A stretch of DNA of 53,668 nt from Bdellovibrionota bacterium (lineage in GTDB: Bacteria > Bdellovibrionota > UBA1018 > CAUJDS01), in the NCBI GenBank assembly GCA_963169695.1, contig CAUJDS010000048.1, forward strand, positions 1-53,668, written 5' to 3'. A model generated the notes under the pieces. The model was not told the origin of the DNA. It saw only the letters and a list, made by a program, of their open reading frames with translations, and did no database searches. Positions 45,290 through 50,650 of this stretch are shown in pieces. A program made the position numbers and the translations under genes. Each line of letters begins with the position of its first letter. Position 1 is the first letter of the stretch.

Positions 45290-46562
45290 ATATAAACCGG
45301 CCTCCTACCATGGTTGCTGTTATGGCTCCGGTAAACGTCTGATCCATCATCGGTGAATTATGACTCAAAGAGAGCGTATTTTCGGGCGTAAGTTTCCATT
45401 TTCTTTTTACGTCAAACAAAACCAAATCTGCCGAGGAGCCAACAGCAAGTGTTGGAACTTTGATTTTTAATACCTTTGCGGGAGCGAGCGTCATTGCTTC
45501 TACCCAACGCATGGCCGTGAGCGTTTCATTTTGCACTAAGGAGTAGGTAGAAGTCACACTTGTTTCTAATCCGGTGATACCGTTTGCGCAGCTTTCAAAA
45601 GGAGCGTCTTTGTCAGCAGAAGCGTGTGGTGCATGGTCAGAGGCAATGCAGTCAATGACTCCGGTCCTTAGGCCATCCAATAAGGCAAGGCGGTCGGACT
45701 CGTCTCTCAATGGAGGTGCCACCTTGGCCTCAGATCGAAAACAAGCTACCTTGGCATGATTGAGCAGCAGGTGATGAGGACAAACTTCAGCGGTTATTGG
45801 GAGGCCTTCATCCTTTGCTCTTCGGATCATTTCAACTGCCGTTGCGGTCGACACATGCGCAATATGGACTCGGCACCGAGTTAGTCGACATAGGGCAATT
45901 TCTCGTGCCACCATGATTTCTTCTGTAGCAGACGGGCTCCCCGAAAGCCCAAGCCGCTCGGAATGACTTCCTTCATGCATCGAAGCATACTGACTTAACG
46001 TTGGATCTTCTGCGTGACTAATGATTGCAACACCTAAGGATTTTGCGTAGTCCATGGCGTTTCTCATAAGACGACTGCTAGCCACAGGCCGCCCGTCGTC
46101 GCTAAATGCCACACAACCTGCTTGTGCCATTTCACCCATCTCGGTGAGAACTTCTCCCTGAAGGCCTTTGCTAACAGCTCCAATGGGAAGGACTTTGACG
46201 TTTTGCTTTTCGGCCTCACGTAAAATCCATGCCGTAACGGCTGCCTGATCATTAACGGGTTGAGTGTTGGCCATACAAGCAACGGTAGAAAATCCACCAG
46301 CTGCAGCCGCAAGACACCCAGTAAGAATGGTTTCTTTGTGAGATTCTCCTGGTTCTCTAAGGTGCACATGCATGTCGATGAGTCCTGGCATGAGCCAGTG
46401 TCCCGATACGTCGATTGTAGTGTAACCGGATGCTACCGGAATTTTCCCGGATTTGGCGAGGGACTTCACCATACCGCTTTCAATAAGGAGATCGCATTGA
46501 TCATCTAGGCCCTGGCTAGGATCTATGACCCGAGCGTTGCAAATGAGCAAACTCGAATTCAT
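45276..46562 (-). CDS. pyrC: Dihydroorotase
   Basis: Cyclises carbamoyl aspartate to dihydroorotate. The 428-residue protein is class I: the metal motif is MPGLIDMHVHLREPGESHKE, with GGFSTVACMANTQPVNDQAA, AEVCPHHLLL and CIASDHAPHASADKD for the other ligands. It overlaps pyrB by four bases (ATGA) and carA by 14 bases. This order (pyrB, pyrC, carA) is common for pyrimidine operons. Confidence 0.96.
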   Translation of the reverse strand: MNSSLLICNARVIDPSQGLDDQCDLLIESGMVKSLAKSGKIPVASGYTTIDVSGHWLMPGLIDMHVHLREPGESHKETILTGCLAAAAGGFSTVACMANTQPVNDQAAVTAWILREAEKQNVKVLPIGAVSKGLQGEVLTEMGEMAQAGCVAFSDDGRPVASSRLMRNAMDYAKSLGVAIISHAEDPTLSQYASMHEGSHSERLGLSGSPSATEEIMVAREIALCRLTRCRVHIAHVSTATAVEMIRRAKDEGLPITAEVCPHHLLLNHAKVACFRSEAKVAPPLRDESDRLALLDGLRTGVIDCIASDHAPHASADKDAPFESCANGITGLETSVTSTYSLVQNETLTAMRWVEAMTLAPAKVLKIKVPTLAVGSSADLVLFDVKRKWKLTPENTLSLSHNSPMMDQTFTGAITATMVGGRFIYERK

Positions 46563-47476
46563 ACGAGTGGGTCCTTTCCAAGAACACGAGCCAAAACAGC
46601 CATCCTCATATAGAGACCTCTTCGAACTTGCTCCAAAATAAGAGATTTTGGATGATCTTCCATGTCGAATCCAAGTTCAACGCCCCAATTGACGGGCCCG
46701 GGGTGGAGAATCCACGCCTGGGGACAGAGATCGTGGTGCTTCTTTTTGGTGAGTCCCCAAATGCGGTGAAATTCTTGCTGACTAGGAATGAGGGCGCTCG
46801 TCATTCGCTCTTTCTGAAGTCGAAAGCAAAAAATCGCATCCGCACCCGCTACGGCCTTTTCTAGAACAGGCTCCACATGTACCTCCCACTCTGCTGCCGA
46901 TTTTGGCAAGAGCGTATAAGGACCACAGAGCGTAATCTTTGCGCCCAGTTTATTGAGCAGTGGAATTTGAGATCTTGCGACTCTGCTATGGAGGATGTCT
47001 CCCAATAGCACGATTTTCTTCCCTTTGATGGAGGGGAGGTGATTGAGTAGCGTCCAACAATCCAAGAGACCTTGAGTTGGATGTTGGTATTGACCATCCC
47101 CTGCGCTTACAATCGGACTCTTCGTCCATTGTGTAAGAAGATGACAGGTTCCTGACCTTGGTGCGCGAATAATCCAAGTGTCTGGATGGTACTGATTGAG
47201 GGTCAAAATAGTATCTTTGAGAGACTCGCCCTTATTGAGACTTGATTGAGAAATAGAGAAATGAAGAACATTTGCGCCCAATCGCTTGGCCGCCAATTCG
47301 AAAGATATTTTTGTACGAGTGGAGTCTTCCAAAAATAATTGGAGAATTGTTTTACCCCGAAGGATACCTGAAGTGGTCTCTGAATCCTTTTGATGGTTTT
47401 CAAAAAAGGAAGCCAACTCGGTGAACTTTTGAAAGTCCGTTAGGGAGAGGTCTTCTGTTGTCAGCAAGTGACTCAT
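46559..47476 (-). CDS. pyrB: Aspartate carbamoyltransferase catalytic subunit
   Basis: Joins carbamoyl phosphate and aspartate. The 305-residue protein has the carbamoyl-phosphate loop EDSTRTKISFELAAKRLGAN, the motif HPTQGLLDCWTLLNH, and HPGPVNWGVELG. All catalytic residues expected from the family are visible. No regulatory subunit gene (pyrI) is adjacent. Only 22 bases separate it from the HAD phosphatase gene, with no attenuator hairpin, so the pyr genes seem to depend on the upstream lepA-lepB promoter or an unrecognised one. Confidence 0.97.
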   Translation of the reverse strand: MSHLLTTEDLSLTDFQKFTELASFFENHQKDSETTSGILRGKTILQLFLEDSTRTKISFELAAKRLGANVLHFSISQSSLNKGESLKDTILTLNQYHPDTWIIRAPRSGTCHLLTQWTKSPIVSAGDGQYQHPTQGLLDCWTLLNHLPSIKGKKIVLLGDILHSRVARSQIPLLNKLGAKITLCGPYTLLPKSAAEWEVHVEPVLEKAVAGADAIFCFRLQKERMTSALIPSQQEFHRIWGLTKKKHHDLCPQAWILHPGPVNWGVELGFDMEDHPKSLILEQVRRGLYMRMAVLARVLGKDPLV

Positions 47477-47498: not shown

Positions 47499-48266
47499 CT
47501 AACCTTGGTTCATTCTTTTTTCCAGAAATTCCCGACATACTTGAAAGTTACCTGACCAGGCGTAGCCTTTTTTTGATCCTGGGCGGGGTGTCCGAACCAC
47601 CTCAAGCTGCGTTTGCTTAGGATTGATCAGAAAAACATGGATTCCTGTCCTTCTGGCAACGAGATCCTTGTGAGGATCATTTCCAATATGTAGGCACTCT
47701 GATCCAAGAAGGCCTTCACGCTCCAGGAGTTCGGCGTAGTAGCTCTCAAAGGGTTTACAGGAATGCATCACTGAGGCATCCGTGATGCTACGAAAAAGCT
47801 TGGGTTCGAGACCCGCCCACATCAGGCGCATGTCGATGAACTCTCGTGGCCAAACAGGGTTGGTCGCTAAGACTAAGGGGTAATGTTCTTTGGCCCAGAA
47901 AAGGAAGTCCTTGGCCCCAACCATCGGATAGAAATGACGTCGAATCGATCGAAAGAGAATTCGGATAGCATTGTGAAACTCTTGCTCCGCTTGTTCGGGG
48001 TTCGTTCCGTAGTATCGCGCCGCAACTTCAATTCCGCGAGAAAAGTTGGTGGCTGCCCCTTCTTGTTTCTCTACGGCATTGCGAAGGGCGGTTAAAAAAC
48101 GAATGGCGCCCAATCGGCCCATCTTCTTGCGGTGAATATTGACCCACCCGCGTACAAAACCCACATTTACGTCAAATGAATCCGCGCCTAAAAGTGTCCC
48201 GTCTAAATCGAGAAAGAGTGTTTTCCATGGGGCTTTCAGTTGGGTTTCCTCCCTAATCGGTTCCAT
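47499..48266 (-). CDS. HAD-superfamily hydrolase
   Basis: A phosphatase-fold enzyme of about 255 residues. Motif I is LFLDLDGTLL (nucleophile and acid/base Asp), motif II is VLATNPVWP (Thr in the expected place), motif III has KPFESYY and motif IV is IGNDPHKDLVA. Start uncertain: ATG 48266 is used here. ATG 48314 adds 16 residues, and a CTG at 48239 has the best ribosome site (GGGAGG) and would overlap the lepB stop as CTGA. Substrate unknown. It lies between lepB and pyrB. Confidence 0.82.
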   Translation of the reverse strand: MEPIREETQLKAPWKTLFLDLDGTLLGADSFDVNVGFVRGWVNIHRKKMGRLGAIRFLTALRNAVEKQEGAATNFSRGIEVAARYYGTNPEQAEQEFHNAIRILFRSIRRHFYPMVGAKDFLFWAKEHYPLVLATNPVWPREFIDMRLMWAGLEPKLFRSITDASVMHSCKPFESYYAELLEREGLLGSECLHIGNDPHKDLVARRTGIHVFLINPKQTQLEVVRTPRPGSKKGYAWSGNFQVCREFLEKRMNQG

Positions 48267-48853
48267 TGGAGCGAAGGAATCGAGCCTTCCTTTTTGAGAT
48301 CCAGGGAGAGCCAAATTCTAAATACTTTGGATTGAATGGCTGATTGAGGAATAATATCCCAAGTTCTTGCTGAAACTTTTGAATTACGGTGATCTCCCAC
48401 TACGAAATAAGAATCCTTAGGAATCGTGTGTTCGAAAGTATCAACAAGGCCTGGCTGAGATAAACATATACTATATATCATCTGAGGGTGAACTTCTTTC
48501 CCACAGCGTAACGGGCCTTGGAATTCGGGGGAGTCTATAAACTCTAACGACTTGTTATTAAATATTAAGGCTCCATTTTTAATGGCGATGCGATCTCCCG
48601 ATTTTCCAATGACGCGTTTGAGGTAAGTGCGAGTGGGTTCGGAGGGGGGAGCGTAAACCACAATGTCGCCATATTGAATTGTTTGAGATAGCAATCCTGG
48701 AATCACTATAGAAAGAGCATAGTCTCCAGAATCTAACGTCGGCGCCATCACTCCTGGCGGGACTCGAATAGACTCAATGACCCATGCCTTGATAAGAGTT
48801 GCGACTCCAATCGAGAGGCCCAAAACGATCGCATAAAATCGTACAGCCTTCAC
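48236..48853 (-). CDS. lepB: Signal peptidase I homologue lacking the catalytic Ser
   Basis: A 205-residue protein of the type I leader peptidase fold. The N-terminus is one hydrophobic helix (about 5-25). The box that normally reads S-M-x-P-T has Val35 before Met36 (RVPPGVMAPTLDSGD); codon GTG is clear in the sequence. The general base Lys79 is kept (TYLKRVIGKSGD). The last box, GDHRNSKVSARTW (153-165), also departs from the consensus GDNRxxSxDSR. It therefore looks inactive as a classic Ser/Lys peptidase, or uses another chemistry. It follows lepA directly, the usual lepA-lepB order. An active paralogue is expected elsewhere in the genome. Confidence 0.88.
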   Translation of the reverse strand: MKAVRFYAIVLGLSIGVATLIKAWVIESIRVPPGVMAPTLDSGDYALSIVIPGLLSQTIQYGDIVVYAPPSEPTRTYLKRVIGKSGDRIAIKNGALIFNNKSLEFIDSPEFQGPLRCGKEVHPQMIYSICLSQPGLVDTFEHTIPKDSYFVVGDHRNSKVSARTWDIIPQSAIQSKVFRIWLSLDLKKEGSIPSLQWNRLGRKPN

Positions 48854-50650
48854 CTATTCCACCTTCAATACTGCTAGGAAAGCCTCCTGAGGAACTTCGA
48901 CCGATCCAAGTTGCTTCATCCGCTTCTTCCCGCGCTTTTGTTTCTCTAAGAGCTTTCTCTTTCGAGAGATATCACCACCATAACACTTGGCAGTCACATT
49001 TTTTCGAAGGGCAGAAATAGTTTCTCGGGCCACAACCTTTGCGCCAATCGCCGCCTGAATGGCGATTTGAAACATCTGTCGCTCGATCAATTCCTTGAGC
49101 CTCTTTGCCAGGTCCTGTCCACGGTGGAAAGCTTTGTCGCGATGAGTAATAATCGAGAGGGCATCCACCTTCTCGCCGTTAATCAGAATATCAAGTTTTA
49201 CGAGGTCAGCGGCTTGATAGTCTGTCAATTCATAGTCCATCGATGCATAACCGCGAGAGAGACTCTTCAGCTTGTCATAGAAATCAAAAACCATCTCACC
49301 CAACGGGAGCTGGTAAACTAGCGTCACTCGATCTGCGGTAAAGTAGTCCATTTTTTCCTGAACCCCACGTTTCTCAACACAAAGGGTAATCACTGCTCCG
49401 ACATATTCTGATGGCAAATGCATCGTCAGTCGAATGTAAGGCTCCTCTACGAGTTGTATAGCAGCTGGATCTGGAAATTTTGCCGGATTGTCCACCATCA
49501 GGACATCGCCGTTGGTCTGGGTTACACGAAAAATCACCGATGGCGCGGTGGTAATCAGATCCAAATTGTATTCCCGCTCGAGTCGTTCTTGAGCGACTTC
49601 CATATGAAGTAGGCCTAAGAACCCGCATCGAAATCCGAATCCCAGCGCAGTAGAAGTTTCGGGTTCCCAGGTGATGGAACTGTCATTGAGCTTGAGTTTT
49701 TCGAGTGAATTTTTTAACGGATGGTAATCTTCAGCGTTAATCGGATAGATTCCACAGAATACGACAGGTTTAACTTCTTTGAATCCATCTAAGGGTATCG
49801 AGGTTCGATGATTGGAAGCCATGATGGTGTCTCCCACCTTCATGTACTGAACATCTTTCATTCCACAAATGACGGCGCCTACTTCTCCACTGGTCAGTTG
49901 CTCTACATCAAGCATTTTGGGAGAAAATACGCCAACTCTTTGCACTTCAAATTCTTTGTTGGCGTGATGAAGCCAAATTTTCATCCCTGGAGCTATGGAA
50001 CCCTCAAAAACGCGACAGAGTGCTACCGCTCCCCAGTAAGGGTCAAACCAACTATCAAAAATAAGCGCGCGAAGGGGTTCCCCATCTGCATCTTTTGGTG
50101 GCGGAAAGTTTTGTACAATTCCTTCCAAGACGTCTGCAATTCCAATTCCCGATTTGGCACTGCAGCGAATTGCTCGTGTTGTATCAACTAACCCTATGGC
50201 CGAATCTATTTCTTTCAGGACTCGCTCGGGATCCGATGCGGGGAGGTCAATTTTATTTATAACGGGAAAAACTTCTAAGTTGCTGTCGAGCGCTAAAAAA
50301 ACATTGGCTAGCGTCTGTGCTTCGACGCCTTGAACTGCATCAACAACAAGAATGGCTCCTTCGCACGCCGCTAAAGATCGGGAGACTTCATAGGTGAAGT
50401 CCACATGTCCTGGAGTGTCGATCAGATTCAAGATGTAATCTTTTCCGTCCTTGGCGTGGTACCGGAGTCGGACGCTCTGCGCTTTGATTGTGATTCCACG
50501 TTCACGTTCGATGTCCATATTGTCCAAGAACTGAGCTTCCATCTCTCTCTTAGAGACCGTATGGGTCATCTCAAGTATGCGATCTGCAAGGGTGGACTTA
50601 CCGTGGTCAATATGGGCAATAATGCAAAAATTTCTGATATTTTTGGGCAT
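48854..50650 (-). CDS. lepA: Elongation factor 4 (LepA)
   Basis: Ribosome-associated GTPase that aids translation and ribosome assembly. The 598-residue protein has the full family length: G1 [27 protein letters not shown] (G3), [11 protein letters not shown] (G4), and the C-terminal LepA-specific domain with [32 protein letters not shown] and a basic end ([17 protein letters not shown]). The lepB start follows its stop with no gap. A 42-base gap separates it from the small membrane protein gene upstream, which may share its promoter. Confidence 0.97.

What the first reader, a model, noticed from the sequence alone, without database searches (positions are those of the whole stretch)
48236..48853. 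Signal peptidase I homologue without its catalytic serine
In the sequence, the box that should read Ser-Met-x-Pro-Thr has Val-Met-Ala-Pro-Thr (Val35, codon GTG). The general base Lys79 in KRVIGKSGD is kept and the GDNR-type box is degenerate. Type I signal peptidases use a Ser/Lys dyad, so this copy should not cleave signal peptides by the usual route. It is still in the lepA-lepB operon with an intact frame, so it appears kept for some purpose: an inactive regulator, a chaperone for exported proteins, or a different activity.
Basis: partly seen in the sequence, partly recalled or inferred. Interest (0 to 1): 0.62.

Follow-up and report, generated by a model that had tools for sequence, protein, structure and literature searches.

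The report
Conserved dead signal peptidase beside lepA
The gene encodes a membrane-anchored relative of the enzyme that trims export signals off proteins; it has lost the cutting residue, and so have most of its counterparts at the same genome position across a whole order of Bdellovibrio-related bacteria, so it is probably a kept, non-cutting helper rather than a broken gene.

Summary
A 205-aa type I signal peptidase homologue follows lepA directly and has Val35 (GTG) at the nucleophile position. Lys79 is kept and the GDNR box is degenerate.

It is not a one-off. In 37 lepA-linked homologues (nearly all from the window's order), the position reads Ala 23, Ser 6, Val 3, Phe 3, Thr 2. The S-x-D-S/G-R motif that supports catalysis is absent in 43 of 43 such genes or fragments, and present in 67 of 70 other S26 copies from the same genomes. 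The window genome has one separate canonical copy with all motifs.

The Ser-less copies keep the fold, the membrane anchor and the peptide-cleft residues. A cysteine pair occurs together in 30 of 37. One close Ser-less pair has dN/dS 0.17-0.24. In other families of the phylum, lepA is followed by up to three tandem signal peptidases, and the copy nearest pyrB has often lost Ser too.

Best reading: a maintained pseudo-signal-peptidase that binds exported precursors without cutting them, comparable to streptococcal SipA and staphylococcal SpsA but a separate, lepA-linked lineage. Non-catalysis is well supported; the binding role is inferred.

The parts
48239..48853 (-). S26 signal peptidase I homologue without nucleophile, 205 aa (GTG start; stop codon at 48236-48238)
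   Evidence: AlphaFold2 model pLDDT 93.5, closest to E. coli SPase I
48785..48850 (-). N-terminal helix, residues 2-23, predicted membrane anchor
   Evidence: secondary structure of the model; hydrophobic sequence; same place as the anchor of canonical copies
48734..48775 (-). box with the nucleophile position, residues 27-40 ESIRVPPGVMAPTL
48749..48751 (-). codon GTG, Val35, in place of the nucleophile Ser (E. coli Ser90)
48617..48619 (-). Lys79, general-base Lys (E. coli Lys145); Lys in 29 and Arg in 8 of 37 relatives
48464..48505 (-). beta hairpin with Cys117 and Cys130, inferred disulfide specific to this family
   Evidence: both Cys in 30, neither in 6, one in 1 of 37 sequences; strands 116-122 and 125-131
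48365..48397 (-). degenerate GDNRDxSxDSR box (GDHRNSKVSAR, residues 153-163)
   Evidence: motif S-x-D-S/G-R in 0 of 43 lepA-linked copies versus 67 of 70 others
48854..50650 (-). lepA (elongation factor 4), directly upstream; its TAG abuts the GTG start
47499..48314 (-). HAD-like hydrolase (recognised by reading its DLDGT motif) overlapping the end of the S26 gene; the listed TTG start is probably too far upstream (an ATG lies near 48266)
   Evidence: not found in relatives' loci
46559..47476 (-). pyrB, the next conserved neighbour in relatives

Best explanation
This is a maintained pseudo-signal-peptidase. A paralogue of signal peptidase I at the lepA-pyrB locus lost the Ser nucleophile and the E-box residues that support the Lys general base, and kept the membrane anchor, the fold and the substrate cleft. 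It most likely sits in the inner membrane facing the periplasm, binds signal-peptide or transmembrane segments of exported proteins in the cleft without cutting them, and so acts as a chaperone or adaptor, or hands or withholds substrates to the one canonical LepB. Shown: sequence, genomic context, Ser loss across the order, selection in one pair, fold by prediction. Inferred: lack of activity, substrate binding, and a role with LepB.
For: 31 of 37 lepA-linked copies lack Ser. E-box support residues are lost in all lepA-linked copies. The S1/S3 cleft positions are kept in Ser-less members (E. coli F84, I86, M91, L95, Y143, I144 as Y/F, I/V/M, M, L/V, Y/F, I/L; which residues line the cleft is from my knowledge of the E. 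coli enzyme). Arg80, Asp154, Arg156, Glu120 and Trp181 are invariant. dN/dS is 0.17-0.24 for a close pair that has both Ala and Arg at the dyad, against 0.08-0.10 for canonical LepB and 0.02-0.04 for LepA of the same genomes. The canonical enzyme is present separately. The fold matches E. coli SPase I (E 8.7e-10) and inactive SipA (4n31, E 1.5e-5). Precedent: SipA lost Ser and Lys, kept the cleft, and is essential for pilus assembly (PMC4049620).
Against: No binding partner, expression or activity data. SipA itself could not be shown to bind peptides in vitro. Six relatives have Ser with Lys and might cut. The genes evolve faster than canonical LepB, and one family of the order (f6) has no S26 gene next to lepA, so the function is dispensable in some lineages. 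The window copy is on a long branch.
Confidence: 0.5

Rival explanations
1. It is a non-catalytic subunit of a heteromeric signal peptidase: it pairs with canonical LepB, as non-catalytic subunits do in the eukaryotic complex, and tunes its specificity or amount.
For: In related families two or three signal peptidase genes stand in tandem between lepA and pyrB, the last one often Ser-less; an inactive SpsA accompanies active SpsB in staphylococci (PMC12445088).
Against: In the window genome the canonical gene is on another contig; no complex was modelled or measured.
Confidence: 0.25
2. It is still a peptidase through another nucleophile (Ser/Thr two residues upstream of the old Ser, or a Cys), or is active where Ser or Thr is present, for a narrow set of substrates.
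For: Lys is kept in 23 of 31 Ser-less copies; Ser or Thr stands at the -2 position in most members.
Against: No replacement nucleophile is conserved; in the window -2 is Pro; Lys is Arg in 8 Ser-less members; the residues that hold the Lys are gone; the Cys pair co-occurs as a disulfide would.
Confidence: 0.12
3. It is a decaying duplicate kept only because it lies inside an operon.
For: Faster evolution than canonical LepB, absence in family f6, long window branch.
Against: Intact frames in about 40 genomes, ten invariant residues, family-specific Cys pair, dN/dS well below 1 in the close Ser-less pair.
Confidence: 0.1
4. Sequencing or assembly error at the Ser codon.
For: The window genome is a draft assembly of 82 contigs.
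Against: Two base changes are needed, and independent genomes also lack Ser at this place.
Confidence: 0.01

Closest known systems
Type I signal peptidase LepB (peptidase S26A; PF10502, TIGR02227)
   Same: Fold, membrane anchor, box with Met-x-Pro, KR box, Gly-Asp-x-Arg, neighbourhood of lepA
   Different: Nucleophile Ser absent, oxyanion Ser and the E-box Ser and Asp absent, extra Cys pair
Streptococcus pyogenes SipA (pilus assembly, PDB 4n31)
   Same: S26 fold with the nucleophile lost and the peptide cleft kept; works without cutting
   Different: SipA lost both Ser and Lys (Asp, Gly) and lies in a pilus operon with a sortase; here Lys is usually kept and the neighbours are lepA and pyrB; a different lineage by context
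Staphylococcus SpsA
   Same: Conserved inactive paralogue alongside an essential active signal peptidase
   Different: SpsA lacks both catalytic residues; here the active copy is elsewhere in the genome; I know of no function for SpsA

Membership tests
Type I signal peptidase (S26A), by descent | Profile match above the curated cut-off | tested here: met
   PF10502 86.8 vs 22.9 bits; TIGR02227 99 vs 47 bits
Type I signal peptidase (S26A), by descent | SPase I fold with N-terminal membrane anchor | tested here: met
   Predicted model pLDDT 93.5; Foldseek best hit E. coli SPase I, TM 0.66
Type I signal peptidase, as an enzyme | Ser nucleophile in the S-M-x-P box | tested here: not met
   Val35; Ser in 6 of 37 lepA-linked relatives
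Type I signal peptidase, as an enzyme | Lys general base | tested here: met
   Lys79; Arg in 8 of 37 relatives
Type I signal peptidase, as an enzyme | GDNRDxSxDSR box holding the Lys | tested here: not met
   GDHRNSKVSAR; motif in 0 of 43 lepA-linked copies vs 67 of 70 others
SipA-type pilus assembly factor | Dyad lost, peptide cleft conserved | tested here: inconclusive
   Ser lost but Lys kept; cleft positions kept by alignment; the model's cleft was not measured
SipA-type pilus assembly factor | Encoded with sortase and pilins | tested here: not met
   Neighbours are lepA, HAD, pyrB, pyrC, carA
SpsA-type inactive paralogue | Stands with the active paralogue in one genome | tested here: met
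   One canonical copy elsewhere in G000; tandem in other families of the phylum
SpsA-type inactive paralogue | No cleavage activity | not testable with these tools
   Needs a biochemical assay

The most novel reading that the evidence does not exclude
A phylum-level line of bacteria (Bdellovibrio relatives) keeps a dedicated non-cutting signal peptidase paralogue at the lepA locus, which lost its nucleophile several times and works as a substrate-binding or regulatory partner of LepB, in effect a bacterial signal peptidase complex with a catalytically dead member.
Probability: 0.3. Interest if true: 0.7.

Novelty: new variant of a known kind. Interest (0 to 1): 0.52.

Why it matters
Inactive signal peptidase homologues are described in a few Gram-positive bacteria (SipA, SpsA), and of these two only SipA has a role that I know of. 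Here a Ser-less paralogue is the usual form across an order of Bdellovibrio-related bacteria, at a fixed genomic place and with its cleft kept. That makes it possible to test in a new setting what a dead signal peptidase is for. It also warns that annotating such genes as signal peptidase I, as the profile cut-offs would do, is probably wrong in function.

Tried and rejected
Sequencing error: rejected, because many genomes share the loss and two base changes are needed. Cys as a new nucleophile: rejected, because the two Cys occur together (30 both, 6 neither, 1 single) and face each other in a predicted hairpin, as a disulfide would. Conservation of Val itself: not found (3 of 37). That scan brought in Bdellovibrionota/Oligoflexia-labelled MAGs and, outside them, mostly canonical Gemmatimonadota and Ignavibacteria enzymes. 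Whether the pyrB-proximal third copies of other families are the same ancestral paralogue as the order's lepA-linked family was not resolved by the tree. Searches for papers on Bdellovibrio signal peptidases or pseudo-signal-peptidases found nothing relevant. In dN/dS, pairs other than G024/G040 are saturated at synonymous sites and were not relied on.

Full report
The observation. ORF 48236-48853 is on the minus strand, starts with GTG directly after the TAG of lepA, and encodes 205 residues. It matches signal peptidase I well above curated cut-offs. The nucleophile position is Val35 (codon GTG, 48749-48751), followed by Met36, Ala37, Pro38 and Thr39. Lys79 and Arg80 are kept. The GDNRDNSxDSR box reads GDHRNSKVSAR. 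By alignment with E. coli SPase I, the equivalents of Ser88, Ser278 and Asp280 are Pro33, Lys159 and Ser161, so most of the machinery around the dyad is gone as well as the nucleophile. The roles of those E. coli residues are from established knowledge of that enzyme; the Ser90, Lys145 and Ser278 roles are also described in PMC4049620.

The genome. In the window's assembly (2.79 Mb, 95.6% complete) a Pfam search finds exactly two S26 proteins. The other is a 256-aa enzyme with IPSGSMIPTL, IKRVVGIPGD and GDNRDHSHDSRFWGFVP. The organism therefore has one canonical LepB for cleavage, and the window protein is an additional paralogue.

Relatives. Searching 58 genomes (the window's own, 54 others of its order and 3 of its class) gave one to four S26 genes each. 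Fetching the divergent copies with flanks showed that, in about 40 genomes, an S26 gene lies between lepA and pyrB. In 37 clean sequences (alignment A1: the window and relatives of its order, plus one from a more distant family of the class), the nucleophile column reads Ala 23, Ser 6, Val 3, Phe 3, Thr 2. The next Met and Pro are invariant. The Lys column is Lys 29, Arg 8; Arg occurs only in copies that lack Ser. The S-x-D-S/G-R motif is in 0 of 43 lepA-linked copies (fragments included) and in 67 of 70 other S26 copies; Ser is in 66 of those 70. In a maximum-likelihood tree (quick search) the lepA-linked genes of the order group together apart from the canonical copies, except that two unusual extra copies fall inside, with moderate support; Ser members lie scattered among Ala members, needing at least five changes. 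A second, careful tree gave a broadly similar picture (single active lepA-linked copies of f9, f10 and f20 fall near the order's lepA-linked genes), placed the window closest to another Val copy (L037, support 100/95), and needed nine Ser/non-Ser changes over all rows. Long branches make exact placements unsure. Contigs recognised by name are MAGs labelled Bdellovibrionales, Bacteriovoracaceae or Oligoflexia.

Wider phylum. Downstream of lepA in other families there are either single signal peptidases with Ser, Lys and the E-box (f9, f10, f11, f18, f20), or arrays of two or three tandem signal peptidases, usually followed by pyrB (f13, f17, f19, f21). Some families have none there. In f13 all copies have Ser. 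In f17, f19 and f21 the last copy often has Thr, Arg, Asp or Leu at the nucleophile, sometimes with Lys lost as well. Family f6 of the window's order has no S26 gene near lepA but has two canonical copies elsewhere. My inference is that the locus was once occupied by working signal peptidases, and that the copy next to pyrB lost catalysis repeatedly. Whether the order's gene and the third copies elsewhere are one orthologous line is not resolved by the tree.

Is it kept? Frames are intact in all clean copies, ten residues are invariant (Glu27, Met36, Pro38, Gly43, Asp44, Arg80, Glu120, Asp154, Arg156, Trp181), and two Cys occur together (30 both, 6 neither, 1 single), facing each other in a predicted hairpin. 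In the closest pair with unsaturated synonymous sites (G024/G040, Ala and Arg at the dyad positions), dN/dS is 0.17-0.24, against 0.08-0.10 for canonical LepB and 0.02-0.04 for LepA of the same genomes. That is purifying selection, weaker than on the enzyme.

Structure and cleft. The predicted model is confident (mean pLDDT 93.5) and closest to E. coli SPase I (E 8.7e-10), followed by S. pyogenes SipA and S. aureus SpsB. Positions that line the peptide cleft in E. coli (Phe84, Ile86, Met91, Leu95, Tyr143, Ile144) keep their character in the Ser-less members, as reported for SipA, whose cleft is conserved although both catalytic residues are lost and which is essential for pilus polymerisation (PMC4049620). 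Staphylococcal SpsA is a second precedent for an inactive homologue beside an active one (PMC12445088).

Mechanism. The best-supported reading is a membrane-anchored, non-cutting homologue that binds exported precursors in the conserved cleft and either chaperones them or regulates their access to LepB. Loss of catalysis is strongly supported by sequence, though not measured. The binding role rests on cleft conservation and the SipA analogy. A partnership with LepB rests on the tandem arrays in relatives. The Lys kept in most Ser-less copies could be structural; this is unexplained. Thr members, and the six Ser members, might retain activity.

Novelty. Dead signal peptidases are known in a few Gram-positive bacteria. 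An order-wide, lepA-linked Ser-less lineage in Bdellovibrio relatives was not found in the papers searched, a library that lacks most subscription journals. I rate it a new variant of a known kind.

Noticed in passing
window 47499-48314 (-): A HAD-like hydrolase gene lies between the S26 gene and pyrB and overlaps the S26 3' end; among the 111 loci examined it was found only in the window's own locus, while in many relatives pyrB follows the S26 gene directly or overlaps it.
   Followed up: partly
L210, L211, L221, L222, L201, L202, L226, L227: Two or three tandem signal peptidase genes lie between lepA and pyrB in other families of the phylum; in f17 the last copy has Thr, Arg or Asp instead of Ser.
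   Followed up: partly
A1 columns of Cys117 and Cys130 (window 48464-48505): A Cys pair in the CGxE...YxxC hairpin is characteristic of the lepA-linked family, and Glu120 between them is invariant.
   Followed up: partly
L092 891-1520 (+): A lepA-linked copy with a six-residue insertion just before the nucleophile position (IPSTPSTTPYTMAPT), a further sign that the catalytic geometry is not kept.
   Followed up: no
L079 2570-3574 (+) and L068 3017-3766 (+): Other S26 copies not linked to lepA with Gly (alignment uncertain) or Thr at the nucleophile but an intact GDNRDxSxDSR-type box.
   Followed up: no
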